DNA of 64,000 nucleotides from Lachnospiraceae bacterium (GTDB taxonomy: Bacteria; Bacillota; Clostridia; Lachnospirales; Lachnospiraceae), in contig JAFSGE010000035.1 of assembly GCA_017434885.1 (NCBI GenBank), positions 108,869-172,868 on the forward strand, in the 5' to 3' direction. Of this stretch, positions 3,799-50,282 are shown piece after piece. A program made the position numbers and the translations under genes. The notes beneath the pieces are model-generated. The model saw nothing but the letters and a program-made list of their open reading frames with translations. It was not told where the DNA came from and did not search any database. Each line of letters begins with the position of its first letter. Position 1 is the first letter of the stretch.

Positions 3799-4126
3799 AA
3801 CAAATGCCGCTTCGCGTCGCTTGTTTTTCACATTTTCTTGTCCGGTGTTTTCACTCGCATGCCCGCACTCCGTGCTATCCTGCTGCTTCGCAGCTGCATG
3901 CTCTTCTCACCTTCGCTCTGCTCGGTGTTTTCACTCGCATGCCCGCACTCCGTGCTTCCCTGCTGCTTCGCAGCTGCATGCTCTTCTCACCTTCGCTCTG
4001 CTCGGTGTTTTCACTCGCATGCCCGCACTCCGTGCTATCCTGCTGCTTCGCAGCTGCATGCTCGTTAATGCTTGCGTGAAAAACAAATGCCGCTTCGCGT
4101 CGCTTGTTTTTCTACTGCAAGCATTA
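3799..4126. repeat. Composite intergenic repeat between spoIIP and lepA
   Basis: This gene-free stretch of about 350 bases is a layered repeat. An 80-base unit starting CGGTGTTTTCACTCGCATGC occurs at 3843-3922 and 3923-4002, with a partial copy at 4003-4063. An identical 31-base segment (containing ATGCCGCTTCGCGTCGC) flanks the array at 3799-3829 and 4082-4112. The promoter-distal copy is inside a hairpin whose outer arms are AATGCTTGC and GCAAGCATT (about 4068-4126). Each 80-base unit carries its own short hairpin (GCTGCGAAGCAGC on the minus strand). Because 80 is not a multiple of three, open frames crossing it are not genes. It may act as a transcript-processing or attenuating structure, or be a small non-autonomous repeat. 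Confidence 0.9.
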
Positions 4127-34130: not shown

Positions 34131-35339
34131 TTACGCCTTTACCGCAAAAAGTTCTGCCAATTTTTCTTCTTTCAGCTTAGAACCGATAACGCAGAATTTA
34201 CCTGTCACATCAGGCTTACCGGGACGCACATTGCTCTCGCCGGGTACATAATCAAAGTAAATCCATCCACCGTCTTTATCGGGTACCATACCCTTTGCAC
34301 GCAAAACAAACCCATAAACGGACTCCTGCTCCAATTCTTCCAGAATTGCTTCAATTTCCTGCTTACTGTAAGCCGCAGGAGTTTCCACTCCCCAGCTTCC
34401 GAATACATCATCTGCATGGTGATGTCCGTGATGGTCATGGTCGTGGCAACCGCAGGTACAGTTTTCCCCATGTTCATGATGGTGATGATGTTCATGCTCC
34501 TCATGCTCATGGTGGTGGTATTCATGCTCGTGGTCATGGTCGTGACAGCCGCAGGTGCAGTCTTCCCCATGTTCATGATGATGGTGATGCTCATGCTCCT
34601 CATGCTCATGGTGGTGGTGTTCATGCTCGTGGTCATGGTCGTGACAACCGCAGGTGCAGTCTTCCCCATGTTCATGATGGTGATGATGTTCATGCTCGTG
34701 ATGATGATGTTTTAGTTCTTCCATCATCTGGGATTCCAAATCTTTTGCACCTTCAATGGTATCAAGAATATCTTTTCCTTCCAAATCATCCCAAGGTGTT
34801 GTGATAATGGTTGCCTTGTCATTATGCTCTCTGATTAATTCAATACATTTGTTTAATTTATCTTCTTTGATATTGCCGGTTCTGCTCAAAATAATTGTTC
34901 CTGCATGGGCAATCTGATTGATGAAAAACTCACCAAAGTTCTTCATATACATTTTGCATTTGGAAGCATCCACAACTGCAACCGCACTGTTTAACACAAC
35001 TTCCTGTTCGTCAATCACATCGGATACTGCTTTCATGACATCGGAAAGCTTACCCACTCCCGAAGGCTCAATCAAAATCCTCTCCGGTGTATAAGTCTTT
35101 AATACTTCCTTTAAAGAAGTACCGAAATCACCTACCAGCGAACAGCAAATACAGCCGGAATTCATTTCTTTGATTTCGATTCCCGCTTCTTTTAAGAAAC
35201 CGCCGTCAATGCCGATTTCACCAAATTCATTTTCAATCAGAACAACCTTAGTATCAGCAAATGCTTCCTTCAAAAGCTTTTTAATCAATGTGGTTTTTCC
35301 TGCGCCCAAAAAACCTGAAACAATATCAATCTTTGTCAT
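34131..35339 (-). CDS. CobW/G3E-family GTPase with His/Cys-rich metal-binding repeats
   Basis: 402 residues. Walker A GFLGAGKTT (9-17), metal motif GCICC (62-66), IEPSGVG and a CobW C-terminal domain (about 325-402) mark a metallochaperone GTPase. Residues 211-308 form an insert with three near-identical 33-residue units rich in His and containing CTCGCHDHDH, flanked by runs of four to five His. Such inserts usually buffer zinc or nickel. The insert falls where COG0523 proteins carry shorter His loops. First gene of the GTPase-GTPase-CmpB group. Confidence 0.88.
   Translation of the reverse strand: MTKIDIVSGFLGAGKTTLIKKLLKEAFADTKVVLIENEFGEIGIDGGFLKEAGIEIKEMNSGCICCSLVGDFGTSLKEVLKTYTPERILIEPSGVGKLSDVMKAVSDVIDEQEVVLNSAVAVVDASKCKMYMKNFGEFFINQIAHAGTIILSRTGNIKEDKLNKCIELIREHNDKATIITTPWDDLEGKDILDTIEGAKDLESQMMEELKHHHHEHEHHHHHEHGEDCTCGCHDHDHEHEHHHHEHEEHEHHHHHEHGEDCTCGCHDHDHEHEYHHHEHEEHEHHHHHEHGENCTCGCHDHDHHGHHHADDVFGSWGVETPAAYSKQEIEAILEELEQESVYGFVLRAKGMVPDKDGGWIYFDYVPGESNVRPGKPDVTGKFCVIGSKLKEEKLAELFAVKA
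34450..34700. repeat. 99-base tandem coding repeat
   Basis: Units begin with CCGCAGGT at 34450, 34549 and 34648, a strict 99-base (33-codon) period with only a few differences, encoding the His/Cys-rich insert of the CobW-type GTPase. High identity suggests recent expansion; copy number may vary between strains. Confidence 0.9.
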
Positions 35340-36204: not shown

Positions 36205-38022
36205 CTACTGTCCTCTTGGTATACTATCCGCCACACACAATGCTCCATACCCCACCCGCTCATTGGGATACACACTTTCTCCTCTTATGGGCTTTGCTCC
36301 CCGTCTGAAATAAGCCTTTACCTTCTCCCCATAAAGATACGGATCATTTCCCCTGACAATGCCCCATTCCAACAAAAGTGCTGCCCCTCCGGTGGCAAAA
36401 GGCGCTGCAAAAGAAGTCCCTGACACCTGCACAAAAGCACCATCCGGTCCAATCGTATTAATCGCTACCCCGGGCGCCGCAATATCCGGCTTTATACTTC
36501 CCTGATTTACCCTCTCTCCCACAATACTCTGCAAAGGATATCCTCTTCCCGAAAAATCCGCATATGCCTCATAAGCGGCATCATAAGCACCTACCGTTAT
36601 AATTTTGGATGCAGTGGATGGTATGGTCAAAGTTTTTACCGGCACCGGTGAAAAAAAGCGGGTATCTGCATTTAAAACCGTACCGGACGGCAAATAAAAA
36701 TCATAATTCCCCGTCACAATCTCTATGGGAGTTAACTCAAATGTCCAAACGCCTTGGTTTACATAACTCCCAACAGGAAGGAAATCAAAATATATCTCCT
36801 GATTGACGGAATAGGGAGACGGTTCCCCTACATAAATAAGTACCTCCGTTTCTTCCATCATCAGCCTTTCTGTTCGGATTTGAAGAGAATCAAGCTCTCT
36901 GCGGATTCCCGACGGAGAGATAACCGCTATTTGAAAACGGTCCACATACTCTTTCCATAACTGCACATTGAATGAGGATTGATAATTCCCCACATTCAAC
37001 TCTACTCTTCGCGTTTCTCCTCTCTGCAGTCCCTGCTGTGCCCTGCCGGATACATGACCGCCTGCGGCGCCTTCATTCCCGCTTCCCACACAGATAACGG
37101 TTCTGCCGATTTCCGCCACATTGTCCAGAAAACGTTCCACCAGAGAAGTTCCGTCATGGGGGCCGTAAGTATTTCCAAAGCTTAAATTGATAGCAATCGG
37201 CTTTCCCAGTTCCACCGCTTTGTTTACCAAATAAGTGAGTGCACGCATCAGCTGCGTGGTGCGGGGAAAGGAATCCGGCTGCGTACTTCCCATTTTCACA
37301 ATCAGAAGTTCGCTTTCCGGTGCCATCCCCTGATATCGTCCGTCCTGTAAATTTCCGCTCGCTGCCGCAATTGCCGCAACTGCAGTTCCGTGTCCGGACG
37401 TATCAAAACTGGGAACCAGACTTGCAGGATTCTGAGACTGCAATGCTGCATCAATCCGATATTTTTCAAATTCTACACCCGTTGCAAATCCTTTTGGCGC
37501 AGAAGCCATTCCTGCAAACTCTCCCTCTTCTCCCACACGCTCATTCACCTGCTGTACAGTCAGTGTCTGATCCCAAAGTGCACGAATTCTGCTCTCGCCT
37601 GCACTATTAAAAAATTCAGGACTGTTATAATCAATCCCGGAATCAATAATTCCCACCAAAACACCTTCTCCTGTCAAAAAGGGGGTACGCTGTGAAATAG
37701 GAAAAACGCAGGATGCCTGTTTCCCCCGAAGCTGTGAAAAAAACAGCCTCTTAGGTTTTTCCACATACTCTACTTCTTCCAGATTGGCAAAGCTCTCTAT
37801 CAGATTTTCAGGAATCGTTACAATGGCATATCCCGCAATCAGCGGTTCTACCGTAATGAGAGAACTGTTCAGGCGTCCGATATCACCGTTGTATTTCACA
37901 ATCAATTCCCACAAACGACTCTCCGGCTTAAAGCCCACAGAAAGCTGGTCTGAACGTTCTCTTTCACTTTCACTTGCCGAAAGCGCAAGATTTAATAAAT
38001 TTTCTAATTTTTGACTCGGCAT
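36205..38022 (-). CDS. Csp-like subtilisin-family serine protease
   Basis: 605 residues of the S8 family with a jelly-roll insert, the architecture of clostridial Csp germination proteases. A short prodomain (about 1-95) is followed by the catalytic domain with Asp127 (GIIDSGIDYNS), His211 (DTSGHGTAVAAIAA) and Ser537 (VSGTSFAAPFATGG), so the triad is intact, unlike the pseudoproteases CspA/CspC. The insert (about 330-470) forms the beta-rich domain. No signal peptide. In Clostridioides and Clostridium, Csp proteins activate the cortex hydrolase SleC; no sleC is nearby, so the target here is inferred. Confidence 0.82.
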   Translation of the reverse strand: MPSQKLENLLNLALSASESERERSDQLSVGFKPESRLWELIVKYNGDIGRLNSSLITVEPLIAGYAIVTIPENLIESFANLEEVEYVEKPKRLFFSQLRGKQASCVFPISQRTPFLTGEGVLVGIIDSGIDYNSPEFFNSAGESRIRALWDQTLTVQQVNERVGEEGEFAGMASAPKGFATGVEFEKYRIDAALQSQNPASLVPSFDTSGHGTAVAAIAAASGNLQDGRYQGMAPESELLIVKMGSTQPDSFPRTTQLMRALTYLVNKAVELGKPIAINLSFGNTYGPHDGTSLVERFLDNVAEIGRTVICVGSGNEGAAGGHVSGRAQQGLQRGETRRVELNVGNYQSSFNVQLWKEYVDRFQIAVISPSGIRRELDSLQIRTERLMMEETEVLIYVGEPSPYSVNQEIYFDFLPVGSYVNQGVWTFELTPIEIVTGNYDFYLPSGTVLNADTRFFSPVPVKTLTIPSTASKIITVGAYDAAYEAYADFSGRGYPLQSIVGERVNQGSIKPDIAAPGVAINTIGPDGAFVQVSGTSFAAPFATGGAALLLEWGIVRGNDPYLYGEKVKAYFRRGAKPIRGESVYPNERVGYGALCVADSIPRGQ

Positions 38023-40062: not shown

Positions 40063-41442
40063 CTAAAATAATGCTGCTGCCTCTTCATCCTTTTTTTCAT
40101 AAAGCAAAACAATTTCGGAAAGCTGTTTTGCAAGTTTCTTTAAGCTTTTTCCTGTTTGCGCCACTTTCTGTTTTTCTGCTGCCAGCTTCCATTTAAAATC
40201 AAAATTTCCCCACAGGCATTTTGACAAACGGTCCGCTATTTCATCCATTTCTTTCTCCTCCTTTTGCAGTAACAGCGCCAAACCACTTAGCTCCGTCACT
40301 TGCTGCTGTAACAGTTCCGCTCTTAACATAAACTGCACCGTTCCCTGCATCTCTATAGAAAAGGAATCTTTTTCAAATGCAGCCCCCAGCAACTGACATC
40401 CTTCCGGCGTTGCCAAAAGACTTCCTTTTATCGTCGGAATCCCTGCCCATCCGAAATCGTCCACATCCAACAGACTTAGTTTTTCTCCGTTGATTCCCTC
40501 ACTGCTGCCTCTTGTTGCTTCCATCATCTGCATCATAAATGCCGCACATCCGTCTCTTCTTCCTTCCGGAAGCTGCATCATGGATGCAGAAAGCCGCGCC
40601 GCATAGTCTCCCAAAGCGCCTCTCCTTAATGCATAGTCATTACAATTACCGTTAAAGACCGTCTGCCATGTTCCGCTTTTTTCATCCCACCTTCTCTCCG
40701 AAAACATATACTTAATATCGTGGTATGCGGCAAAATCCGCTTTATCCACAGGTGTCCTTATATAGCACTCATTCTCTTTTGGCACAATAGAAATCCCCAG
40801 TACATTAACATAATCATTTTCTCCGTAAATCCCCATAATCTTCTGTCTCCGGTCGTGAAATTCCTGCTCTCCCAAAGCATCTGAAAACCCGTCAATGGCC
40901 TTTTGGGAAAAGCCCTGTCCGTCCACATTGTAGCAGACATCCAGAAGATTACCGTAGCGGGTAGTCATGGTGACATACTGTGCCTTATTTCCCCCTTTAG
41001 AATGTCCTGTTACTATCACTCTGTCTTCTAAGGTAATATCCGTGCATTCCACTACCTCTTCAAAGTAAGCAAGGGCTTTTTCCTGCTGGGGTGTGGCGCT
41101 TTCCGTCATCCCCACACCGTTATCCGGCCATTCCCCGTCTCCGGTACCACGATACACAATGTAAATACTTTCTCCCTCCGATGAGCGGAAGCTGCAGGCT
41201 GCCGTCCCGGTACCATACCCCATCAAATGACTTTGATTGTCAATTACCATGTTACCGATTTGCGGATTTGCGGCAGCCTTGGCAAGAACGGTATATTCTC
41301 CGTGATGAATGCCTCCCTCCCTGTAATCCGGCAAAGTCTCAAGCTCAGAAACAATCTCTCTGATGCTCATTCCGTCATCTGCCTCTTTATAGTCCAAATA
41401 CATATAGGTATTTAAAACAAGGCTGATTTCTTCTTCACTCAT
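40063..41442 (-). CDS. TslA-like type VII lipase: N-terminal DUF2974 lipase fold, C-terminal helical targeting tail
   Basis: 459 residues. The first ~345 residues are an alpha/beta hydrolase of the DUF2974 (Mbeg1-like) group with the nucleophile elbow VTGHSKGGNKAQY (Ser148) and candidate Asp210 (YGENDYVN) and His241 (AAYHDIKYM). The last ~95 residues (about 364-459) are two long amphipathic helices joined by a turn at CLWGNFDFKWKL, reminiscent of WXG100/LXG targeting modules. There is no Sec signal. It is the last gene of the type VII locus, directly after a lipoprotein gene. In Staphylococcus aureus, TslA has this same reversed order (lipase first, LXG-like end last). Function as a secreted antibacterial lipase is inferred. 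CGGAGGTG precedes the ATG. Confidence 0.75.
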   Translation of the reverse strand: MSEEEISLVLNTYMYLDYKEADDGMSIREIVSELETLPDYREGGIHHGEYTVLAKAAANPQIGNMVIDNQSHLMGYGTGTAACSFRSSEGESIYIVYRGTGDGEWPDNGVGMTESATPQQEKALAYFEEVVECTDITLEDRVIVTGHSKGGNKAQYVTMTTRYGNLLDVCYNVDGQGFSQKAIDGFSDALGEQEFHDRRQKIMGIYGENDYVNVLGISIVPKENECYIRTPVDKADFAAYHDIKYMFSERRWDEKSGTWQTVFNGNCNDYALRRGALGDYAARLSASMMQLPEGRRDGCAAFMMQMMEATRGSSEGINGEKLSLLDVDDFGWAGIPTIKGSLLATPEGCQLLGAAFEKDSFSIEMQGTVQFMLRAELLQQQVTELSGLALLLQKEEKEMDEIADRLSKCLWGNFDFKWKLAAEKQKVAQTGKSLKKLAKQLSEIVLLYEKKDEEAAALF

Positions 41443-41454
41443 GGCTCACCTCCG

Positions 41455-42096
41455 TTAATTAATCACCCATCTCATATATCGAATTTGATTTTCTTCATCC
41501 ATGGAAAAAATCAAATTTCTTTTTTTGTCCTCTTTGTTCAATACAAGAGCGCCCCGAATTCTGTAGCCTTTCCTTCCGCATTCTTTCAAAAAAGCCTCCG
41601 TTTTTTCCTCCCATTCCTTACAGGAAGTATCCGTCGCTTGCGGATAGAGATAAAACTGTGTCTTGGCATGTAAATTACATAAGAACTCTTTTGCAGTCAT
41701 TTCCGGCGTAAACTCATCTGTCAGCACAAACTGCGGTATTTTGTACCTCACACGGCACGCTCCCAGCGTCCTTTTTGCTACATCACCCATTTCTGCTTCC
41801 AATTCTTCCCGCAACAGATAAGCCACATAATTATCTTCGTAGTGCACCTGCTTTTGCCATGTTCTTTTCCTGACCAGAATTTCTTCTTCCGGGTATCTCT
41901 TTCCTTTTACCAATATGGCAATATAGTTTTTCCCCAGTTGTCCCCCATAGGCTTCTATGTACTGAAATTCTTCCCCGTATTTCTTTTCCATATAACTTAG
42001 CATGGTTCTGATTTCCATCGTCCTTTTCATATCACACCCCACAATCACTGCCAGAGCCAAAACTCCGATGAAAAATATTTTTCTTCGCACGGACAT
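41455..42096 (-). CDS. Lipoprotein, candidate immunity protein of the type VII lipase
   Basis: 213 residues. Basic start MSVRRK, hydrophobic stretch IFFIGVLALAVIVG and lipobox cysteine at Cys20 or so (VIVGCDMKR) predict a lipid-anchored protein outside the membrane. The rest is alpha/beta with a conserved-looking C-terminus (RNLIFSMDEENQIRYMRWVI). I do not recognise a named domain. It ends 12 bases before the lipase start and begins five bases after the last WXG100 stop with a poor ribosome site, implying translational coupling. The pairing parallels TilA, the membrane lipoprotein that protects S. aureus from TslA. Confidence 0.65.
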   Translation of the reverse strand: MSVRRKIFFIGVLALAVIVGCDMKRTMEIRTMLSYMEKKYGEEFQYIEAYGGQLGKNYIAILVKGKRYPEEEILVRKRTWQKQVHYEDNYVAYLLREELEAEMGDVAKRTLGACRVRYKIPQFVLTDEFTPEMTAKEFLCNLHAKTQFYLYPQATDTSCKEWEEKTEAFLKECGRKGYRIRGALVLNKEDKKRNLIFSMDEENQIRYMRWVIN

Positions 42097-42101
42097 GGTT
42101 T

Positions 42102-42416
42102 TTATACCACAACGCTGCTCTTTAAGCTGTTGCCGGCTCCCGTATTGCTGTTTTCCGCACTCTGATATTGTTTTGCCATTTCCTGCAAATCCTGCACATG
42201 CTCCTGTACCATCCGGTACAGTTTATCCATATCTGCAGAAAGTCCGTCAAATCTGTTTCCATAAGCAGTTGCCGCCTCTCCCTGCCATACACCGCTTAAG
42301 TTCTTTATCAGGGAAAGCATTTCCCCTGTCAGATTCTTCATCTGATTTCCTGTGGTTGCAAACTCACCGGATGTCTGTATCAGTTTTTCAGGTGTAACCT
42401 TTAATAATCCTTCCAT
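42102..42416 (-). CDS. WXG100-family protein 5
   Basis: 104 residues from the ATG at 42416 (GGAGG nine bases upstream). Helix-turn-helix hairpin with the turn LSGVWQGEAATAY (WQG) and the amphipathic flanks typical of EsxA/EsxB proteins; the start MEGLLKVTPEKLIQTSGEF is the classic WXG100 N-terminus. The tail is Ser/Val rich (NSLKSSVVV). It is the most canonical member of the set and the best candidate for an EsxA-like secreted substrate. Confidence 0.88.
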   Translation of the reverse strand: MEGLLKVTPEKLIQTSGEFATTGNQMKNLTGEMLSLIKNLSGVWQGEAATAYGNRFDGLSADMDKLYRMVQEHVQDLQEMAKQYQSAENSNTGAGNSLKSSVVV

Positions 42417-42470
42417 ATTTTCATTCCTCCGTTTTTCATTTTTCAACGTATCTTCTGTTTTCACGCAGTA

Positions 42471-42770
42471 TTAATAATTTCTGTTTCCGGCAATTTCCGC
42501 ATTTCTGGCCTCTGCCTGCTCATACCTCTGTGCAATTTCCAGAAGTGCCTGCACATACTGCTCTATGAGATTTTGAAAACTTTCCATCTGCCTTGTGTCT
42601 CTCTCAAACGCCGTATGAAATGTGTTCTTTGCCTGCCCTTCCCACATCTGACACAGACTTTGCTCCTTTGATGAAAGTTCCTGTGCTTTGCCTTTTAACT
42701 GACTGTTCAGATTGCGCAGATTATCTGCCGCATCCCGTAGCCTTTTTGATGTTACCTGAATCATTGCCAT
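42471..42770 (-). CDS. WXG100-family protein 4
   Basis: 99 residues. MIQVTSKRLRDAADNLRNLN forms helix 1, CQMWEGQAKNTFHTAF carries the WEG turn, and helix 2 ends with LLEIAQRYEQAEARNAEI, containing a YxxxE-like export signature (YEQAE) near the C-terminus. AGGAGG lies eight bases before the ATG. Likely a secreted T7 substrate or a partner of one of the neighbouring small helical proteins. Confidence 0.86.
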   Translation of the reverse strand: MAMIQVTSKRLRDAADNLRNLNSQLKGKAQELSSKEQSLCQMWEGQAKNTFHTAFERDTRQMESFQNLIEQYVQALLEIAQRYEQAEARNAEIAGNRNY

Positions 42771-42784
42771 ATCAAAATCCTCCT

Positions 42785-43096
42785 TTAAAAATAAGTTCTT
42801 ACTCCTGCCGTTGTTACATTCTGTTTTTCCAGCCCGTAAATCTGTTCTGCCTTCTCATTTACCTTGACGGAGAGTTCCTTCAAATTTACTGCGGTTTCCA
42901 AAAGCCCATCAATGGCCCTCACCTCCTTTGCCGCAAAATAATCCGCATTCTCACCAAACCATGCCTTTTTGGTATCACAGAGAATTTGTAAGCCCATACG
43001 CTCTGACATATCTTCCAGCCTTGCTGCCAATGCACTGATTTCTTCCGCAAGTGCCTTTATCTGTTCAAAGTCAACCGCCAGTTCCCAATGCCACAC
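42785..43096 (-). CDS. WXG100-like protein 3
   Basis: 103 residues from a GTG at 43096 that overlaps the previous gene's end, preceded by GGAG. Helix 1 is DFEQIKALAEEISALAARLED, the turn is KKAWFGENADYFAAK (WFG), and helix 2 spans LETAVNLKELSVKVNEKAEQ. Less canonical than proteins 4 and 5; it may be a dedicated chaperone-like partner, comparable to the small helical TlaA proteins that accompany TslA. Confidence 0.75.
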   Translation of the reverse strand: MWHWELAVDFEQIKALAEEISALAARLEDMSERMGLQILCDTKKAWFGENADYFAAKEVRAIDGLLETAVNLKELSVKVNEKAEQIYGLEKQNVTTAGVRTYF

Positions 43097-43391
43097 TTAT
43101 ATTCTCTCCTTCCGCCTTTGCGTATTCTTCTGCAATGATTTCCAACTCATCCGAGAGCTGATGCAGCCCTTCTATCACCTCATGCCACTGCTCACAGACT
43201 TCTGACATTTTACTGCGAAAAGCATCTCCTGCCGCTCCTTTCATGCAGGACAGCGTATCTTCTGCCAAGTCAGCCAGATGTCTCTGGGCTCTGCCTGCTT
43301 TTCCCGATGCAGCTTTTATCTCCTGCGCACTGTTCATTAGCGCTTCCGGTGTAACCAGAATTTCATCTGTTCCCGCCATTCCTAATCCCAC
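43071..43391 (-). CDS. WXG100-like protein 2 with degenerate motif
   Basis: 106 residues from a GTG at 43391, seven bases after GGAGG and overlapping the stop of the preceding gene. The N-terminus EILVTPEALMNSAQEIKAAS is WXG100-like, but the turn reads CMKGAAGDAFRSKM, with Met replacing Trp. The C-terminal helix ends IIAEEYAKAEGENIS. The Trp loss suggests a partner or adaptor role rather than a classical substrate. Confidence 0.75.
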   Translation of the reverse strand: MGLGMAGTDEILVTPEALMNSAQEIKAASGKAGRAQRHLADLAEDTLSCMKGAAGDAFRSKMSEVCEQWHEVIEGLHQLSDELEIIAEEYAKAEGENISVALGTGG

Positions 43392-43693
43392 AAAAATCCC
43401 TCCTTCATCACATCCGCTACCTGTGCTTCACATTCCGTAAAAATCTGTTCTGCCTGCAGCAAGTCAATTAACAGTATTTCGGTTTTATCGCCGCAGCTAT
43501 CCGCCCTCTCCAAAAGCGCTCTCTGTGCCTGAAAAAAAGAGTCTGCCGCTACACCTTTCCACTGCGCTGACAGATAACTGCACTCTGCCTCCAGTTCTTT
43601 TATTGCACGATACAAGTCACTGAGCGCGCCTGTCATTTCTTCCTGAAGCTTTTTTACCCGACTTGCCGTAAATTGCATACTCTGCTGTTCCAT
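43382..43693 (-). CDS. WXG100-like protein 1
   Basis: 103 residues from the ATG at 43693 (AAGGAG six bases upstream). A frame extension into the YukD-like gene has no ribosome site. Helix 1 FTASRVKKLQEEMTGALSDL, turn LSAQWKGVAADSFFQAQ (WKG), helix 2 with Cys residues (LIDLLQAEQIFTECEAQVAD). It is the first of five consecutive small helical genes after yukD. Confidence 0.8.
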   Translation of the reverse strand: MEQQSMQFTASRVKKLQEEMTGALSDLYRAIKELEAECSYLSAQWKGVAADSFFQAQRALLERADSCGDKTEILLIDLLQAEQIFTECEAQVADVMKEGFLWD

Positions 43694-43704
43694 GTCACTC
43701 TCCT

Positions 43705-43947
43705 TCAAAATAAAATCAGCCTCTCTCCGCTTCTGACTCCCTGCTCCTTCATGCTCATATTTTCCAGTAAAAAACATTCCCGGTACATGGCATAGAGATA
43801 GAATTTTTCATCCGAAAATGTTCTCTGCTCCTTCTCGCTTATCAGCTGCTTAATTTCTTTTAGCAAAATTTCCACCGCCTGATTTTCATCCAGTTCAAAA
43901 TCGTAAATTTCTCCTGTTGCCACCATCTGCACGTCAACTAAAATCAA
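43705..43947 (-). CDS. YukD/EsaB-like ubiquitin-fold type VII secretion protein
   Basis: 80 residues from a TTG at 43947 with GGAGG seven bases before it. Beta-grasp features: MILVDVQMVATGEIYDFEL for the first hairpin, a central helix AVEILLKEIKQLI, and the closing SMKEQGVRSGERLILF typical of YukD. In Firmicutes this cytoplasmic protein is a constant T7SSb component. It lies 12 bases below essC. Confidence 0.85.
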   Translation of the reverse strand: MILVDVQMVATGEIYDFELDENQAVEILLKEIKQLISEKEQRTFSDEKFYLYAMYRECFLLENMSMKEQGVRSGERLILF

Positions 43948-43959
43948 TCCTCTGCCTCC

Positions 43960-46900
43960 TTACTCCTTCTTTTCTATGGGAATCATAATGGTTTTCGTAT
44001 CTGTTCCGGCTTTTACTTTCAAATACCCGTAGCCATACGGCAGCGGCCGGTTCATCTGCTCATAGCCCAAATCCCGAAAAGAAAGGATTCTCTGATTTCC
44101 CGGACATCCGCCCATGCAAATTCCCACAGCACTTTTTGCCAACCACTCATACCACTGCGTTCCGATTAACTGTAGTTCCTCCTCGAATGACAAAACAACA
44201 ATTATCAATTTCTGCGGTTCACAGAAAGGCACCTTCTGTACAAACTCCTTAATATCACTAATGCCAAGCACCTCTGCTTCCTCATATGCTTTGCCATCCC
44301 CATATAACGCTCCTCCCTCGTATAACGCAGTTTTCTTTCCCATCCGCTCTATACTGTAAAGAAGCTGTCGCAGCACCTGCCCCTTTCCGCATCCCTGTGC
44401 GCCGGTAATTACAAAAGCATCCGTCTGCTTCAAATACAAAGACTGTGTCATCCCACTTTCTTTTACATATCCTATGGGAATTTCCACCCATGCCCGCTTC
44501 TGTCTCATCCGCCTTTTTTCATCCTGTTTTTGAACATTTTTTTCCTGCATAAACCGCTCCCAAAGCAGTTCTGCACCGCCATGCTCCGGCAAATAAGGAA
44601 AATACATATCCGCCATATCAGGATATTCCTTCCTAAGCGCTACTCCTTTTTGCTCTGCCCGTTCTATCCGCTCATAATCATCGCTGCTTTCCATAAGGGG
44701 CACCTGAAATTCCAAAATGCGTTCTTCCATGCGGCATAATCCTCTTCCTCTGATTCCTTCTTTAGGCAATACGTCAAACCGGTATCTGCGCAGCACATCA
44801 CCATATAGCACCCTGTCGCTCATTTCCAAAGTCATAGTGGTCTTTATCTTTTCAAACAGTCTCGCCGGAATTTCCCCACTGCCGCATCCGGCTGCCGTAA
44901 TAACAAGATAAATTCCGTAATTCACACCCTCCGCCGCTATTTTTTCAATAAATTCTTCATACACATCTTCCGTCATTTGCCTGAATGCCGCATAATTGTC
45001 AATTACAAGATACAAAGTGGATATTTCTTTTGATTGTTTTCTTTGATACTGGGCAAAACCAATGCCCCCAAGAAGTTCTTTTCTCCGAATAAAGAATTGT
45101 TTCAAATGATAAAAAAAGCATTCCGCTTCCTTCTTTTTTGTCATATAGCCAAGGCAGTGAGGCATCCCTGCAAAGCACCGGACTGCCGCCGCTTCCGTGC
45201 CTGCCAGTACAAACTGCGCCGTTCTTGGCGTATGCTTTTCACATAGCTGCCATAAAAAGCTCTGCAAAAATACGCTTTTCCCGGTAGCCGGCGCACCGCA
45301 AAGGCAAAGGTGACCTTCCCTTTCCTGTTGATACAGAACCGGAAATTGCCGCTGCCTTGCCGGGTCATCACAAATCCCAAGACAAATCCCCTTCCACGTC
45401 GTTCTCTCCCTGTGTTCTGCAACCCACATCCCGGGAAGTTCCGGCATCCAAAGTTCTCTCGCCTTAACATACCCAAGTCTCTCTGCCGTTTCACTGACAT
45501 ATTTGATTACACTTTCCAATTGTCTGGGCTTTTTTTCTTTCTCTCCGCTATTCAAAACCGACCTCTGCCCTGTCATGGAGAGCAATGCACTCTGTCCTCT
45601 GCACTCTTTTCCTTCTTCATAGACAGCTTTACTGTAGCCTGTCTGAAAAGGGACAAAAAGTTCATCATTACCTACCTGCAGATATCCTCTGCCCGCCGTT
45701 GTCAGATAAGCGGCATCCGGCCTGTGAAGCATGTCCGTACTGTCCTGTTTCTCCGCTACCCGAAGACACAGCCGAAATCGGGTGTTACTCCAAATTTTGT
45801 CATCCACACAGCCTGCCGGTTTTTGTGTTGCTAAAAGCAAATGAACGCCGAGACTTCTTCCCACCTGGGATAAACTGATAATTTCCTGCATAAATTCAGG
45901 TTCTTCCTTTTTCAGTTCGGCAAATTCATCTACCACCAAAAGTAAATGGGGCATCGGCTCTGTGCACTTTCCTTCTCTGTAAAGCTGCCGATATTCCTCC
46001 ACATGACTAAGCATCCGGTTTCCAAGCATCTGCTGCCGCCTGGTATTTTCGCTTTTAATTGACAAAAGAGCCCGCTTAATCTGCCCTCCCGACAGATTCG
46101 ATATCACTCCGCTGCAATGAGGCAACCCACGCAAGGCCTCTCCCATGCCGCCGCCCTTATAATCAATAACAAAAAAATTTACATCCTCAGGACTAAAGGA
46201 TACCGCAAGAGAAAGAAGATAGGTTTGCAGCAATTCACTTTTCCCTGCACCGGTAGTTCCTGCAATCAGTCCGTGAGGCCCATGGAACTTTTCGTGAATA
46301 TCAAGAAAAACCAACCTGCCTCCCTCACCTTTTCCGATTGGCACACGCATGCGCCGGGCTGTGTTGCTTTCCCGCCACACCACTTTACAATTTAATTCCT
46401 CTACCACGCTGCATCCGAATAATTCCAAAAAGGAAACTCTATCCGGCATTCCTGTCTGCCCGCGCTCACCGTCATCCGCAGCTGCCAGATGACGCATATA
46501 ATCCTCTGCATCTTTCACCTGACATCTGTCCCAGTTTATCCTTCGGCTTTCTGAAATTCCGTCACGATACCATACCATCTCATTCTGCTGCTCAAGCAAC
46601 ATACAGTCAGCCCATGCCGGAATCTCTTCTTTCCTTTTGCCTACATACAAAATACATTGCCTTCCGGCTTCTGCCTTTTCCAGATTAATCTGATTCTCTC
46701 CCTGAATCAGTTCTTCATTGGCGACCACAAATACATAGCGCATCTGCTCCTTTGTCCCGCCATCGTCCGTGAAAATCCCCTGCATCAAAGGCAGCAATTC
46801 ACCTGCCTCCTTCTCATCTCCTGCAATCAGCCTGTTTTTCTTATCTGCTGTCCAAACCTGAGGCGCCCACCGCAAACACTGTGCAAGTTCTAACTCTTTC

Positions 46901-48318
46901 GGATGCTCCTTGTGGTAAAAGTATATTATTCTTAACGTATGTTCATCAAATCCTGCCACAAGCTGTACCAAAAGCTGCGCAAGTATCTCATAAGCTTCAT
47001 CTCCCACGAAACCGATAAGAGTATGTTCTGCGGGAGAAATTCCTACAGGCACATTTTCCAACACGCCATAATCCTCCGCCAACTTATATGCCTCATCCGC
47101 CAATACATCACTACACAGTCCGTTGTTTTTACGGGAATATTTCAGCTTAACCGGAGACGGAATGTCCCCTGTCCCCAGCCTGAGCAGCCGACAATTCTCC
47201 TTTTCACCAAACCGGGTTCGAAGAACTTTGATTCTTCCGTTACTTTTCGGAAGAAACTCACTGTAATGGGGATATCTTTCCAACAAAAATTTTCGATTTT
47301 CTGCTATACACTGCTCCAAATACGTTCTGGCACTCTGCAGGTATGCACGGTAGTCCTCTCTCCGCCTTTTCTCCTGTTTTCGAAAAGTATGCTTTCTGTA
47401 ACAGTGCTGCATCATCCCCCAGAAAATACTCAGCACTGCCGAAGCAACCGTCATGGCAATGGTTGCTTTGTAGTAACCACCGCTTCCGTTACTGCTTGCT
47501 AAAAACGCCATAAGCAGAACCGGCAACACCATAGTTGCAGAAGGACCTACCGACAAGAAAAACGGTTGCCCGTTTTCTCTCTGCGGCGCCTGCGGAAGTT
47601 CCGGTTCCAGTTCTTCCTCCTGAAAGTTTCCCTCACTGACAGAAATCTCTTCTACGGTCTGCAGCTGCATATTCCTCTTCTCTTTTGGCAGTATCGGCGA
47701 TAAAAACCGGTTTCTCTCAGCAAGTCTTAAATCACCAAAAAAAGAATAACAAATCAGCACTTCCGGCAGTACAAGCACCGAAAGACCTAGAAAGGTAATG
47801 CTGTCTCCCACATTCAATACCACATCATTGCAAATTGCACGGTAATTGTGATATACCGGCAGACTCTGCTCGCCAAAGCAAGGGGTAAGTATCAGCTTTC
47901 CGTCCTGCTTCCTGCAAATTCGCAACCTCTCCTCTTCCACGAAGGATGCATATTCATAAAAAATAGCATTTCGAAATCTTGCACCGATTGCAGTTTCACA
48001 GTTACCCTCAAGTATTAATTTCCCACAGGCATTTATCTGCTCCTCTTCTTCGATAAGCACTACAAGTACCTTCTGTTGCTTTGGTCTGTCAGGGAAAAAG
48101 TAACCACCGCTTCTGATTTCCTTTTGATTTATCAGATAGCCTTCTTCCCGCTTAAAAACACGCAGGATAAGAGGTATGCCCTCCTCAAGCTGTTCTGCCG
48201 TTATCAGAAGCCTGACTTCTTCTCCTTCATAAAGGATTTTTCGCTTCACAAAACATACTTTGGATGTGAAGAACCAAAAACAGATTGTCTGCCCGTCTTT
48301 CTTCTTTGGGCCATTCAA
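43960..48318 (-). CDS. essC: EssC-type type VII secretion ATPase
   Basis: FtsK/SpoIIIE-type motor that recognises and exports WXG100 substrates, about 1,452 residues. Numbered from a GTG at 48330: N-terminal FHA-like region (1-220), two membrane helices (about 257-280 and 288-308), then three P-loop domains. Domain 1 has Walker A GTTGAGKS (691-698) and Walker B LLLVVDEFAEL, plus FVIDYKGGGM, as in S. aureus EssC. Domain 2 keeps GAPATGKS (1012-1019) but the Walker B acid is lost (YLVIDNYAAF). Domain 3 has GAQGCGKG (1310-1317) and no clear Walker B. TTG at 48318 is preferred because GGGAGGTG overlaps the GTG and lies 11 bases before it. Confidence 0.93.
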   Translation of the reverse strand: MNGPKKKDGQTICFWFFTSKVCFVKRKILYEGEEVRLLITAEQLEEGIPLILRVFKREEGYLINQKEIRSGGYFFPDRPKQQKVLVVLIEEEEQINACGKLILEGNCETAIGARFRNAIFYEYASFVEEERLRICRKQDGKLILTPCFGEQSLPVYHNYRAICNDVVLNVGDSITFLGLSVLVLPEVLICYSFFGDLRLAERNRFLSPILPKEKRNMQLQTVEEISVSEGNFQEEELEPELPQAPQRENGQPFFLSVGPSATMVLPVLLMAFLASSNGSGGYYKATIAMTVASAVLSIFWGMMQHCYRKHTFRKQEKRRREDYRAYLQSARTYLEQCIAENRKFLLERYPHYSEFLPKSNGRIKVLRTRFGEKENCRLLRLGTGDIPSPVKLKYSRKNNGLCSDVLADEAYKLAEDYGVLENVPVGISPAEHTLIGFVGDEAYEILAQLLVQLVAGFDEHTLRIIYFYHKEHPKELELAQCLRWAPQVWTADKKNRLIAGDEKEAGELLPLMQGIFTDDGGTKEQMRYVFVVANEELIQGENQINLEKAEAGRQCILYVGKRKEEIPAWADCMLLEQQNEMVWYRDGISESRRINWDRCQVKDAEDYMRHLAAADDGERGQTGMPDRVSFLELFGCSVVEELNCKVVWRESNTARRMRVPIGKGEGGRLVFLDIHEKFHGPHGLIAGTTGAGKSELLQTYLLSLAVSFSPEDVNFFVIDYKGGGMGEALRGLPHCSGVISNLSGGQIKRALLSIKSENTRRQQMLGNRMLSHVEEYRQLYREGKCTEPMPHLLLVVDEFAELKKEEPEFMQEIISLSQVGRSLGVHLLLATQKPAGCVDDKIWSNTRFRLCLRVAEKQDSTDMLHRPDAAYLTTAGRGYLQVGNDELFVPFQTGYSKAVYEEGKECRGQSALLSMTGQRSVLNSGEKEKKPRQLESVIKYVSETAERLGYVKARELWMPELPGMWVAEHRERTTWKGICLGICDDPARQRQFPVLYQQEREGHLCLCGAPATGKSVFLQSFLWQLCEKHTPRTAQFVLAGTEAAAVRCFAGMPHCLGYMTKKKEAECFFYHLKQFFIRRKELLGGIGFAQYQRKQSKEISTLYLVIDNYAAFRQMTEDVYEEFIEKIAAEGVNYGIYLVITAAGCGSGEIPARLFEKIKTTMTLEMSDRVLYGDVLRRYRFDVLPKEGIRGRGLCRMEERILEFQVPLMESSDDYERIERAEQKGVALRKEYPDMADMYFPYLPEHGGAELLWERFMQEKNVQKQDEKRRMRQKRAWVEIPIGYVKESGMTQSLYLKQTDAFVITGAQGCGKGQVLRQLLYSIERMGKKTALYEGGALYGDGKAYEEAEVLGISDIKEFVQKVPFCEPQKLIIVVLSFEEELQLIGTQWYEWLAKSAVGICMGGCPGNQRILSFRDLGYEQMNRPLPYGYGYLKVKAGTDTKTIMIPIEKKE

Positions 48319-48432
48319 ATAAAATCGCACCTCCCATTTGTACTTAGTTCATTCGGATAAATTACGGAATCTAAGATTCGTTATCAGAATTCAGATAAAA
48401 AGTATATTAAAAGAAATTTTTGAAGTGAACTC

Positions 48433-48461
48433 ATAGTATCAGATTTTCGTACACCTGTCAA
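48433..48461 (-). promoter_or_regulatory. Sigma-A promoter of the type VII operon
   Basis: On the minus strand a perfect TTGACA (48461-48456) and TACTAT (48438-48433) are 17 bases apart. The AT-rich region upstream could act as an UP element. A roughly 110-base leader follows. No strong internal promoter or terminator was seen down to 40063, so all nine genes may be one transcript. Confidence 0.8.
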
Positions 48462-48506: not shown

Positions 48507-49364
48507 CTACCCCAATGCCACATCCAGCATCATCATAATCAGGAAACCTGCGAGAACCCCTGCTGTTCCCCAGTTTTTACATGCGTCAGCATCCGCTTCC
48601 TCACCGTTATCCGCGCAAACATTTTTGTCGTCTTCTCTTTTCTCTGCACCGCGCTGTGACTCCGGTATCAGTTCTTTCACCGACACATAAACCATGGTTC
48701 CCGCCGCAAAAGAAAGAAGCCACGGCATGGCATGTTGTATCTGTCTTGCAACCAAGGCAATCCCCATACCGAAGATAAATTCTACGGCGCCGGAAAGGCT
48801 GCCTATCAGAAATGATTTTCCCTTACTCATCCCGTCCTGTCTAAGAGGCAGGGAAACTGCCGCACCCTCCGGGAAATTCTGAATACCGATTCCGATTGCA
48901 AGTGCAAAAGCCTCTGCCAGTAAAACCATATCGGCCTCTTTTTGCATGGCAAGGGCAAAAGCTAGCCCCACCGCCATTCCCTCCGGAATATTGTGGAGTG
49001 TCACCGCCGTGACAAGCAGTATATTTCTGTGAAGGGATGCATACTGCCCGTCACGTTTCTTTTCCGTTTGGTAAATCTGCGGCAACTTATTATCCAGTAT
49101 CATTAAAAAGATACTCCCCGTCAAAAATCCTCCGGCAGCAGGCAAAAGTCCGCTTTCCCCTGCATTTTCTGCCTGTTCAATAGCCGGAAGCAACAGTGAC
49201 CATACAGAGGCGGCTATCATCACCCCTGCTGCAAAGCCGAGGAGTACTCTTTGCCTATGGCCTCCTGCGTCTTTTGTGAAGAAAAATACCATGGCAGCAC
49301 CAAGCGCCGTCATAAAAAATGTAAAGCCTGTTCCAAGCATTACCCAAAAAACCATCTGACTCAT
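48507..49364 (-). CDS. ZIP-family divalent metal transporter
   Basis: 285 residues, about eight membrane helices, of the ZIP (GufA-like) family. Metal-binding motifs are TLHNIPEGMAVGLAF in helix 4 and GIGIQNFPEGAAVSLPL in helix 5. An acidic, Cys-containing loop (EKREDDKNVCADNGEEADAD) precedes the last helix. It likely imports zinc or iron. The ATG at 49364 follows AGAGG; a start at 49385 has none. It is upstream of, and separate from, the type VII promoter. Confidence 0.88.
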   Translation of the reverse strand: MSQMVFWVMLGTGFTFFMTALGAAMVFFFTKDAGGHRQRVLLGFAAGVMIAASVWSLLLPAIEQAENAGESGLLPAAGGFLTGSIFLMILDNKLPQIYQTEKKRDGQYASLHRNILLVTAVTLHNIPEGMAVGLAFALAMQKEADMVLLAEAFALAIGIGIQNFPEGAAVSLPLRQDGMSKGKSFLIGSLSGAVEFIFGMGIALVARQIQHAMPWLLSFAAGTMVYVSVKELIPESQRGAEKREDDKNVCADNGEEADADACKNWGTAGVLAGFLIMMMLDVALG

Positions 49365-49427
49365 CACTGCCTCTTTCCCCTGCATACAAGGCGTTTTCCT
49401 CTATGGTATTATATTTCTTTTGGGTTA

Positions 49428-50234
49428 TTAATGTGCCTGAAAACCGCTTAAAAGCAAATCCTTTGTTGCTTCATCATCCTCATGTGTTATCGTAATGACT
49501 GTTGCACGGTCTTCTTTGATGTTCACATAGATATTCTGTGCAAAGGTTAATACATCATATTTCGTGATGCTTGTAATCTCCAAAAATTCGACATCCCCTA
49601 TCATCACGTAGTCATCACTGATTTCAATATCACAGTCCAAAGACTCCAAAGCTGTCAGATTTGCTACCGCTATCTGCGCATAGGTTTCTTCTGTCATTTC
49701 CATGGGAAGTTTTTCCACCGCTATAATTAAATTATCATCACTGCCGGATTTACTCGCTATCATTTCGTAAACAGAAGTCTCAAAAACCTGTTCCATCTCT
49801 TCCTCGGTAAAATCCTCTGAAAGAATCATTTCACCAAGTCCCATCGCAGTATTTATTTCCTCTTCGCTTGCCAATTCCACACCGTCAGGACAAACATATC
49901 TAAGACCAATCCATTCATTTTCCCATTCGTCCACACCGATACTTCCTCTGTGGTATTCTGCATCTATGTAATCATCACTTACGCTTTCTTCTGCGCTCTT
50001 AGTCTGCATCTCTTCGTATGCTTCCTGCAAGCTTACGATTTCATCCTGTAATGCGGAAGTTTCTTCCTGAAGTGCCTCAATTTCTTCATTCAATTTTTCA
50101 ATTTCTTCTTCTGCATCTTCCTGTATTTTCTCTATCTTTTCTTCCAGTTCAGCTTTTTCTGCTTCATTCATGCCACCGCAGGCTGTCATAAACATGGAAA
50201 AAATACATAATGCTGCTAAAAATCTTTTTTTCAC
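49428..50234 (-). CDS. Coiled-coil lipoprotein of unknown function
   Basis: 268 residues from a GTG at 50234 (AGGAG seven bases upstream). Signal peptide MKKRFLAALCIFSMFMTACG with lipobox Cys, then a long acidic coiled coil (about 25-85, EEKIEKIQEDAEEEIEKLNE pattern) and a C-terminal alpha/beta domain (about 105-268). The C-terminal part resembles uncharacterised clostridial lipoproteins; I cannot name it. It lies below kdgK, separated by a hairpin. Confidence 0.75.
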   Translation of the reverse strand: MKKRFLAALCIFSMFMTACGGMNEAEKAELEEKIEKIQEDAEEEIEKLNEEIEALQEETSALQDEIVSLQEAYEEMQTKSAEESVSDDYIDAEYHRGSIGVDEWENEWIGLRYVCPDGVELASEEEINTAMGLGEMILSEDFTEEEMEQVFETSVYEMIASKSGSDDNLIIAVEKLPMEMTEETYAQIAVANLTALESLDCDIEISDDYVMIGDVEFLEITSITKYDVLTFAQNIYVNIKEDRATVITITHEDDEATKDLLLSGFQAH

Positions 50235-50252
50235 TGCTTTTCTCCTATGCAA

Positions 50253-50282
50253 ATACCCCTCTGTCAAATGACAGAGAGGTAT
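50253..50282 (-). terminator. Hairpin between kdgK and the lipoprotein gene
   Basis: ATACCCCTCTGTCA and TGACAGAGAGGTAT form a 14-base near-perfect stem with a two-base loop. The T run is short, so it may only partly terminate the uronate operon or protect its 3' end. Confidence 0.55.

What the first reader, a model, noticed from the sequence alone, without database searches (positions are those of the whole stretch)
40063..42096. TslA/TilA-like type VII lipase toxin and lipoprotein immunity pair in a clostridial locus
Seen: a DUF2974-type alpha/beta hydrolase (GHSKG, candidate Ser148-Asp210-His241) whose last ~95 residues form a helical hairpin with a Trp-Gly turn, encoded right after a lipobox protein, at the end of an EssC/WXG100 operon. 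Known: S. aureus TslA has an N-terminal lipase and C-terminal LXG-like targeting end, and TilA is a lipoprotein antidote. Inferred: this is an independent, gut-clostridial version with the same reversed architecture.
Basis: partly seen in the sequence, partly recalled or inferred. Interest (0 to 1): 0.85.

Follow-up and report, generated by a model that had tools for sequence, protein, structure and literature searches.

The report
Gut-bacterial lipase with WXG100-like tail
A gut bacterium carries a lipase whose tail looks like the small WXG100 proteins exported by type VII secretion, beside a membrane-anchored partner that resembles an immunity protein but that its relatives have lost several times while keeping the lipase.

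Summary
Window 40063-41442(-) encodes a 459-aa DUF2974/Mbeg1-like hydrolase (triad S148/D210/H241, 34 of 34 aligned relatives), 12 bp after a 213-aa lipobox protein (LPP), at the end of an EssC-YukD-five-WXG100 operon. The tail is a WXG100-type domain (profile-profile E 3.7e-6 with the operon's second WXG protein over 31 loci) ending in YxxxD/E. TslA/TilA is the closest known system in function, but not the same architecture: the tail runs forward, lacks TslA's GxL, the WXG genes lie upstream, LPP gives no DUF576 match, and the catalytic domain is conserved rather than polymorphic. The lipase is in 37 of 37 genomes of the genus, LPP in 22 of 37; presence/absence needs five changes on the EssC tree, one a visible deletion between sister rows. 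In a class-wide sample all 10 LPP-bearing genomes (window's included) also carry such a lipase. Best reading: a T7-exported phospholipase; LPP is an ancestral membrane-anchored inhibitor that became dispensable as the lipase became a fixed core effector. Secretion, activity and inhibition are inferred; no structure model could be obtained. New variant of a known kind.

The parts
40063..41442 (-). Lipase-WXG100 fusion, 459 aa: Mbeg1-like (DUF2974) alpha/beta hydrolase domain (about residues 1-345) plus C-terminal WXG100-type domain (about 365-459)
   Evidence: Pfam PF11187 E 1.6e-12; tail-to-WXG B profile match E 3.7e-6, 87 columns, 31 loci
40999..41001 (-). Ser148 codon (GHSKG, predicted nucleophile)
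   Evidence: S in 34 of 34
40813..40815 (-). Asp210 codon (predicted catalytic acid)
   Evidence: D in 34 of 34
40720..40722 (-). His241 codon (predicted catalytic base)
   Evidence: H in 34 of 34
40066..40350 (-). C-terminal WXG100-type domain (residues 365-459)
   Evidence: TAIL HMM: 46 of 46 non-lipase hits among 2485 ORFs are WXG100 proteins; hhalign
40087..40101 (-). YEKKD = YxxxD/E-type signal (Tyr448-Asp452)
   Evidence: Y 33 of 34; +4 D 25, E 3, N 5, Q 1 of 34
41455..42096 (-). LPP: 213-aa partner with N-terminal hydrophobic stretch and lipobox-like IVGC (Cys21, 42034-42036)
   Evidence: family lipobox 8 of 23 by pattern; homologous to LPPs of other Clostridia, hhalign E 1.2e-39
42102..42464 (-). 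WXG100 protein E (104 aa if started at the internal ATG, as in relatives)
   Evidence: PF06013 E 5.4e-15
42471..42770 (-). WXG100 protein D
   Evidence: PF06013 E 4e-14
42785..43096 (-). WXG100-like protein C (divergent)
   Evidence: PF06013 E 0.0068, under cut-off; conserved position
43071..43391 (-). WXG100 protein B, the nearest relative of the lipase tail among the five
   Evidence: PF06013 E 4.7e-10; hhalign with tail
43382..43777 (-). WXG100-like protein A (start uncertain)
   Evidence: PF06013 E 1.1e-4, under cut-off
43705..43947 (-). YukD/EsaB ubiquitin-like protein, 80 aa
   Evidence: PF08817 27.5 bits, cut-off 27
43960..48330 (-). EssC-type T7SS ATPase, 1456 aa, possibly FHA-like N-terminus
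   Evidence: TIGR03928 E 7.1e-232, slightly under the curated cut-off; weak N-terminal matches (best E 0.014) to PDB chains known to me as FHA-domain proteins
48433..48461 (-). Candidate operon promoter: TTGACA-17-TACTAT with TG before the second hexamer, upstream of essC
   Evidence: consensus match only; the number of sites in the region is not above chance (17 against 14.7 +/- 3.6)

Best explanation
The 459-aa protein is most likely a substrate of its own operon's type VII secretion system: an Mbeg1-like Ser-Asp-His lipase/phospholipase carried out by a WXG100-type domain at its C-terminus. The tail probably pairs with one of the operon's WXG100 proteins (B-type weakly favoured) and is read by EssC through the terminal YxxxD/E signal. 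Outside the cytoplasm the enzyme cleaves phospholipids. LPP is most likely an extracytoplasmic, membrane-anchored inhibitor (immunity protein) that belongs to the lipase in other Clostridia too. In this gut genus the lipase has become a fixed, non-polymorphic core effector and LPP is dispensable and being lost. Shown here by sequence: domain make-up, triad conservation, WXG100 similarity of the tail, conserved operon, LPP-lipase linkage, patchy LPP. Inferred: secretion, substrate, inhibition by LPP, target, and that the patchiness is loss.
For: Operon order essC-yukD-WXG A-B-C-D-E-(LPP)-lipase in 33 loci with the whole region; three WXG genes before D found in 32, YukD recognised in 32. No N-terminal hydrophobic signal in the lipase (34 rows, maximum 15-residue hydropathy 1.04), so Sec export is unlikely. 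Tail = WXG100-type: TAIL HMM hits 46 non-lipase ORFs of 2485 at E<=1, all WXG100, none in five shuffles; WXG_B HMM hits 25 of 33 tails (best 7.2e-7) and 0 lipase domains; hhalign of tail with all B proteins of 31 loci 87%, E 3.7e-6, and with E 68%, E 4.8e-5. In six frames of 37 genomes, 12 non-lipase hits at E<=0.01, 10 of them in WXG arrays (5 confirmed, 5 by place). Final Tyr 33 of 34 in a region of 30% identity; YxxxD/E as a general ESX signal is from PMC10765036 (passages). Lipase in 37 of 37 genus genomes; lipase-domain dN/dS 0.06-0.10 in 8 of 9 close pairs. LPP in 10 of 391 class genomes (window's included), all 10 among the 30 with a lipase match; in the 10 LPP-bearing regions fetched an LPP lies directly before a lipase, 8 of them with WXG genes. 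LPP in 22 of 37 genus genomes; five label changes, all forced by starred branches; L047 keeps a 5' remnant of the LPP that its sister L059 has whole.
Against: No secretion, lipase or inhibition data. No structure model. Pfam does not recognise single tails clearly (WXG100 about 0.1 in 2 of 10). The tail profile matches designed antiparallel coiled coils and chemoreceptors in the PDB (best 4.8e-5) better than EsxB (0.29), so part of the signal is generic helical hairpin. Only B and E of the five WXG proteins match the tail by profile; A, C and D do not rise clearly above their shuffles. LPP distances do not follow lipase distances beyond the EssC background (partial r -0.02, p 0.61). An inhibitor that can be lost while an active-looking enzyme stays is odd for immunity.
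Confidence: 0.6

Rival explanations
1. Ordinary antibacterial T7 toxin with cognate immunity: as TslA/TilA, aimed at competitors; strains without LPP are protected by an unrelated immunity gene or by a resistant envelope.
For: Gene order partner-then-lipase as in tilA-tslA (PMC10730906, section 6); triad spacing 62/31 here against 60/27 in TslA (positions); lipobox in LPPs of other Clostridia, 12 of 14 by eye, 8 of 14 by script pattern; several LPP matches per genome in G314, G366 and G248. Some LPP-less loci do have a secreted-looking or membrane protein downstream (L049, L045).
Against: Catalytic domain is the conserved part of the lipase and under purifying selection; lipase in 37 of 37 genomes; no gene shared by the 12 LPP-less loci was seen to replace LPP (gap 9-176 bp, 263 in L063; 4.5 kb downstream looked at); no LPP match elsewhere in the 15 LPP-less genomes at E<=1e-3.
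Confidence: 0.22
2. LPP is a membrane-anchored helper (foldase, docking or release factor) of the lipase rather than an inhibitor.
For: LPP was found only in genomes with the lipase and gives no DUF576 match; it has a lipobox or an N-terminal hydrophobic stretch in most members.
Against: Patchy with at least five changes on the EssC tree while lipase and triad stay; lipase constraint about equal with and without LPP (distance ratio 0.453 against 0.465, p 0.06).
Confidence: 0.12
3. The lipase is a nutritional or host-lipid enzyme that only uses the T7 machine for export, comparable to PE-domain lipases of mycobacteria (comparison recalled, not tested).
For: Core gene with conserved catalytic domain, several relatives from gut samples; absence of LPP tolerated.
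Against: Homologues in other Clostridia carry LPP and hydrophobic segments, more toxin-like; substrate unknown.
Confidence: 0.15
4. The protein is not exported: the WXG100-type tail lets a cytoplasmic lipase dock on EssC or on WXG proteins to regulate the machine.
For: No export has been measured.
Against: LPP is predicted to be extracytoplasmic and linked to the lipase domain family.
Confidence: 0.06

Closest known systems
TslA/TilA with TlaA1/TlaA2 (Tsl1 family; PMC10730906: abstract, sections 6, 7, 9, 10, 12 read, other passages searched)
   Same: N-terminal Ser-Asp-His lipase domain followed by a C-terminal helical targeting-type domain; similar triad spacing; extracytoplasmic partner gene directly upstream; T7 link; small helical partner genes.
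   Different: Targeting domain runs forward and is WXG100-like with YxxxD/E, where TslA's is described as reversed with GxL (PMC10765036 passage); partner genes upstream, not downstream; LPP gives no DUF576 match and has a lipobox in 8 of 23; catalytic domain conserved instead of polymorphic; partner patchy. TslA itself was not aligned here.
'Reverse' lipases noted at T7SSe (Neobacillus) and T7SSg (Paenibacillus) loci (PMC11217815: section 6 parts 1-2 of 3, section 15 and passages read)
   Same: Lipase with C-terminal targeting domain encoded at a non-T7SSb type VII locus.
   Different: Named there by accession; a term search found no Lachnospir-, Mbeg1, hydrolase or lipoprotein in the main text; not compared by sequence here.
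WXG100 / EsxA-EsxB family
   Same: Tail matches the family in length, order and C-terminal YxxxD/E; closest to WXG protein B of the same operon, whose profile matches solved EsxB structures (E 1.5e-9).
   Different: It is the C-terminal domain of an enzyme, and its turn is mostly K-G or K-N, not W-x-G (0 of 31).
Mbeg1-like (DUF2974, PF11187) hydrolases
   Same: All 34 aligned orthologues match.
   Different: Members without LPP had no T7 genes recognised nearby (10 of 10 such regions fetched).

Membership tests
Tsl1 (TslA) family | N-terminal lipase domain with Ser-Asp-His triad | tested here: met
   S148/D210/H241 34 of 34; Mbeg1-like matched in 34 of 34, Lipase_3 weakly in 7 of 34. Activity not testable here.
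Tsl1 (TslA) family | C-terminal LXG-like domain with reversed GxL motif | tested here: not met
   GxL near the turn 1 of 31; tail aligns forward to WXG B, score 36.8 against 16.3 for the reversed profile.
Tsl1 (TslA) family | Two helical partner genes directly downstream | tested here: not met
   Downstream gene is an FMN-dependent dehydrogenase in 24 of 36 loci, otherwise other genes such as a divergent AraC-type regulator; WXG genes are upstream.
Tsl1 (TslA) family | Polymorphic catalytic domain | tested here: not met
   Lipase domain 66% against tail 30% mean identity in 31 loci. This is between species; strains of one species were not compared.
TilA / DUF576 immunity lipoproteins | DUF576 sequence match | tested here: not met
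   No DUF576 match in 22 members at E<=1 in Pfam-A, nor a telling NCBIfam match. That this Pfam copy holds DUF576 is assumed.
TilA / DUF576 immunity lipoproteins | Lipoprotein signal | tested here: inconclusive
   Window IVGC; 8 of 23 close relatives by pattern; 12 of 14 in other Clostridia by eye, 8 by pattern.
TilA / DUF576 immunity lipoproteins | Binds and inhibits the lipase | not testable with these tools
   needs purified proteins
WXG100 | About 100-residue domain homologous to WXG100 proteins | tested here: met
   (sequence profiles only; Pfam alone is weak; no structure model)
WXG100 | W-x-G at the turn | tested here: not met
   0 of 31 tails
T7SSb | EssB/YukC present | tested here: not met
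   no match in the window's genome (94.5% complete), B. subtilis control positive
T7SSb | EssC and EsaB/YukD present | tested here: met
T7SSb | EsaA and EssA present | not tested
T7SSc-j variants (PMC11217815) | kinase, PPM phosphatase, DUF6382 or Tad genes at the locus | tested here: inconclusive
   none among neighbours scanned in the window; not searched genome-wide; a DUF6382-like gene (under cut-off) follows essC in L084

The most novel reading that the evidence does not exclude
A domesticated type VII toxin: in this gut genus an ancestral antibacterial lipase with lipoprotein immunity lost its hydrophobic segment and its need for immunity, kept only a bare WXG100-type export tail, and became the fixed, perhaps dedicated, cargo of a pared-down type VII system (EssC, EsaB, five WXG100 proteins, no EssB found).
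Probability: 0.3. Interest if true: 0.72.

Novelty: new variant of a known kind. Interest (0 to 1): 0.56.

Why it matters
It would show that a plain, forward WXG100-type domain with the standard YxxxD/E signal works as a C-terminal export tag for an enzyme, a simpler case than TslA for asking how EssC reads signals at either end of a cargo. The patchy partner gene beside an intact lipase makes 'when does a secreted toxin stop needing immunity' testable with close relatives (L047 without LPP, L059 with it).

Tried and rejected
Structure prediction of the lipase and of LPP was tried and never completed, so no fold comparison was made. Covariation of tail and WXG proteins (partial Mantel, 31 loci, no correction for many tests) gave a weak lead to WXG B (r 0.27, p 0.002, the smallest value possible with 500 permutations), with smaller signals for the lipase domain (0.18), A (0.15) and E (0.19), and no LPP-lipase signal. 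Residues separating LPP-bearing from LPP-less lipases barely exceed the shuffled level (0.47 and 0.45 against a 95% level of 0.44) and relatedness was not controlled, so they are not used. Mobile-element origin: no phage match, one weak plasmid match to a DUF2974 protein (28% identity over 26%), and 19 viral stretches with no confirmed relative. Anti-phage defence: no PADLOC match. PHROGs: none. The C-terminal ends of the homologues in other Clostridia resemble WXG100 only weakly: scores up to 21.9 and 18.8 for the two groups, shuffled maxima 13-16, but unrelated profiles reach 14.5-17.7; homology of those ends is not claimed. A first profile of WXG B (A5) used 8 of the B proteins, two of them taken up after they had ranked high in the tail search; the rerun with all B proteins of 31 loci is weaker (E 3.7e-6 instead of 1.2e-7) and is the one to use. 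The tail alignment also matched the lipase-domain profile (76%, 18 columns) because the two alignments overlap by some residues; with the overlap removed the match is gone (0.27%). Positive selection: no dN/dS above 1 in the nine pairs (the A and B columns of pair L046/L053 are mis-assigned and C failed there). My notebook says 34 complete loci; the count is 33.
Full report
What is there. The window encodes, on the minus strand and in this order of transcription, an EssC-type ATPase (43960-48330), a YukD/EsaB protein (43705-43947), five WXG100-type proteins A to E (43777 down to 42102), a 213-aa protein with a lipobox-like signal (LPP, 41455-42096) and a 459-aa hydrolase (40063-41442); LPP and hydrolase are 12 bp apart. 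The hydrolase matches Mbeg1-like/DUF2974 (E 1.6e-12) and, weakly, DUF6792. The next gene is an FMN-dependent dehydrogenase.

Distribution and gene order. Four of the 37 matches hold one stop codon; in three that I could look at (G020, G017, G433) it lies at an end of the gene. In G432 the gene is in two frames and in G010 it is cut by a contig end. Of 16 genomes from other families of the order, one had a weak domain match; a phylum sample of 398 found none besides the window's genome at E<=1e-30. Named members include Parablautia intestinalis and P. muri (lineage). In the 33 loci with the whole region the order essC-yukD-WXG A-B-C-D-E-(LPP)-lipase holds; the script recognised YukD in 32 and all three WXG genes before D in 32.

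Catalytic domain. S148, D210 and H241 are identical in 34 of 34 rows. In 15 further homologous frames, some near-copies of each other and one (L082) the same gene as row L065, S-D-H is kept in 14; the exception is a truncated copy. TslA's reported S164, D224, H251 (PMC10730906, section 10) have spacing 60 and 27, here 62 and 31. No N-terminal hydrophobic signal was seen (34 rows).

The tail. Residues 365-459 average 30% identity between relatives, against 62-70% for residues 1-330. A profile of 33 tails, run over 2522 ORFs of the 36 loci, hits 35 lipases and 46 others at E<=1, and all 46 are WXG100 proteins as defined by the loci's own WXG profiles (168 among 2485 non-lipase ORFs). Five shuffles gave no hit; reversed ORFs gave five hits, all lipases (best 0.0025). 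The reverse search with WXG B hits 25 of 33 tails and no lipase domain; A and C hit none, D and E two each. In six frames of 37 genomes, 36 show the tail itself (not G010, whose tail is divergent) and there are 12 other hits at E<=0.01: ten lie in WXG arrays (G005 three times, G433 and the window confirmed, five by place) and two in unrelated longer frames. Profile-profile alignment of the tails with all B proteins of 31 loci gives 87%, E 3.7e-6, 87 columns, score 36.8, against 16.3 for the reversed profile and 12.9 for the best of 10 shuffles; with E it gives 68%, E 4.8e-5; with A, C, D and with the lipase domain nothing clear. Against this: Pfam alone is weak on single tails, and the tail profile matches designed antiparallel coiled coils and chemoreceptors better than EsxB in the PDB. 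The final Tyr is kept in 33 of 34 rows, with D/E at +4 in 28 and N/Q in 6. YxxxD/E is described as a general ESX signal in PMC10765036 (passages).

The partner. LPP has no telling Pfam or NCBIfam match and no PDB relative (best 0.087). A lipobox pattern is present in 8 of 23; the median N-terminal hydropathy peak is 2.46 (22 members, lowest 0.45). In the class sample (391 genomes, LPP at E<=1e-4, lipase at E<=1e-10) LPP occurs in 10, the window's included, all among the 30 with a lipase match. I fetched 20 regions with other lipase-domain homologues (three are paralogues within the genus, one is from the same order, 16 from a choice among the class hits). In the 10 with LPP, an LPP lies directly before a lipase, and 8 of these regions have WXG100 genes; L091 has only an FtsK-type match and L097 none; L089 also has a lone LPP fragment. 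In the 10 without LPP no WXG100 or EssC match was found. LPPs of the two sets are homologous (hhalign E 1.2e-39). Those of other Clostridia mostly have a lipobox (12 of 14 by eye, with near-copies among them; the script's stricter pattern found 8). In this genus LPP is missing from 15 of 37 genomes, one of them cut by a contig end, and from 12 of the 33 complete loci, where WXG E and lipase lie 9-176 bp apart (263 bp in L063, whose lipase is split). On the EssC tree presence/absence needs five changes, all forced by starred branches (shuffled mean 9.9); the lipase tree needs six, three forced. That these are losses is inferred from LPP in the clade that holds the window and in other Clostridia. 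L047 keeps the first part of LPP, recognisable against its sister row L059, with the rest deleted; in L056 anchor and body of LPP are in different frames, and that operon also holds an insertion. Both L047 and L059 are metagenome assemblies; the LPP-less set includes the isolates P. intestinalis, P. muri and 1xD8-48.

Selection. Between close pairs, lipase-domain dN/dS is 0.06-0.10 in eight pairs and 0.23 in one pair with poor sequence; the tail 0.06-0.26 (nine pairs); LPP 0.10-0.36 (five pairs). The ratio of lipase to EssC distance is about equal with and without LPP (0.453, n 15; 0.465, n 11; p 0.06). LPP distances do not follow lipase distances beyond the EssC background (partial r -0.02, p 0.61, 21 loci). 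This is not the pattern expected of a polymorphic toxin with a tightly matched immunity protein.

Relatives in other Clostridia differ in build. Ten of eleven full-length lipases next to LPP have a strongly hydrophobic segment after the lipase domain (19-residue mean at least 1.85; L089 1.35), whereas 0 of 33 genus members exceed 1.6; six of the eleven end in YxxxE and two in FxxxE. They are 446-954 aa long. Their ends resemble WXG100 only weakly.

The machine. The window's genome has one EssC-type gene plus a distant FtsK-like match, and no EssB/YukC, a YukD, and three WXG100 matches over the Pfam threshold, all in this operon. The EssC N-terminus may be FHA-like (best E 0.014). PMC11217815 (section 6 parts 1-2, section 15, term search) describes T7SSc-j and mentions reverse lipases in T7SSe and T7SSg. 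Whether this locus is a reduced form of one of those types was not settled.

Mechanism, with status. Shown by sequence: enzyme domain with triad, WXG100-type tail with YxxxD/E, T7 operon, LPP linkage and patchiness. Inferred: export by EssC with a WXG partner (likely), phospholipid hydrolysis outside the cell (likely), LPP as inhibitor (more likely than not), change from toxin to core effector in this genus (possible). A direct comparison with TslA and TilA sequences was left out (see referred step), so whether the two lipases share a recent common ancestor is open.

Literature. Ten searches were made. I saw no paper that describes a lipase with a C-terminal WXG100 domain: 'C-terminal WXG100 domain' found 0 papers, 'C-terminal WXG' with 'type VII secretion' 0, 'type VII secretion' with Lachnospiraceae and WXG100 0, DUF2974 with 'type VII secretion' 1, a review of type IV secretion. 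T7SS with Lachnospiraceae found 6 papers, seen as a listing only and not read. Passages only were seen of PMC12558993, PMC3482391, PMC6536674, PMC10765036 and PMC13355648. The library holds only open-licence papers, so this is weak evidence of novelty.

Noticed in passing
window 34131-35339 (-), repeats 34432-34697: CobW-family GTPase with a long His/Glu/Asp-rich insert built from about 2.7 copies of a 99-bp tandem repeat, possibly metal binding.
   Followed up: no
window 48507-49385 (-): ZIP-family metal transporter directly upstream of essC; a homologue is found in 26 of the 36 loci, some of which are cut by contig ends.
   Followed up: no
window 49428-50267 (-): Lipoprotein-like coiled-coil protein (TACG lipobox); homologues sit between the ZIP gene and essC in L042, L048, L063 and L067.
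   Followed up: partly
L087, L088, L089: Repeated LPP-lipase cassettes with large neighbours of 876-908 aa without Pfam match (those scanned), plus a truncated 345-aa lipase with GHLKG in place of GHSKG.
   Followed up: partly
L084:17664-18501: DUF6382-like protein (E 1.7e-4, under cut-off) after EssC-YukD-WXG, recalling the TsxJ component of T7SSe/f/j.
   Followed up: no
L056, T7 operon: An insertion lies inside the T7 operon of this isolate, whose LPP gene is damaged.
   Followed up: no
window 36205-38022 (-): Subtilase with CspB-type prodomain.
   Followed up: no
L068:2875-10028: Tandem array of DUF2974-domain proteins (560 and 561 aa, one of 393 aa cut by the contig end) alternating with single-anchor 267-280 aa proteins, next to two 97-aa proteins; no WXG100 or EssC match in this 10-kb contig: possibly another lipase-partner pair.
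   Followed up: no
window 3843-4063: 80-bp tandem repeat, 2.8 copies, 97% matches.
   Followed up: no
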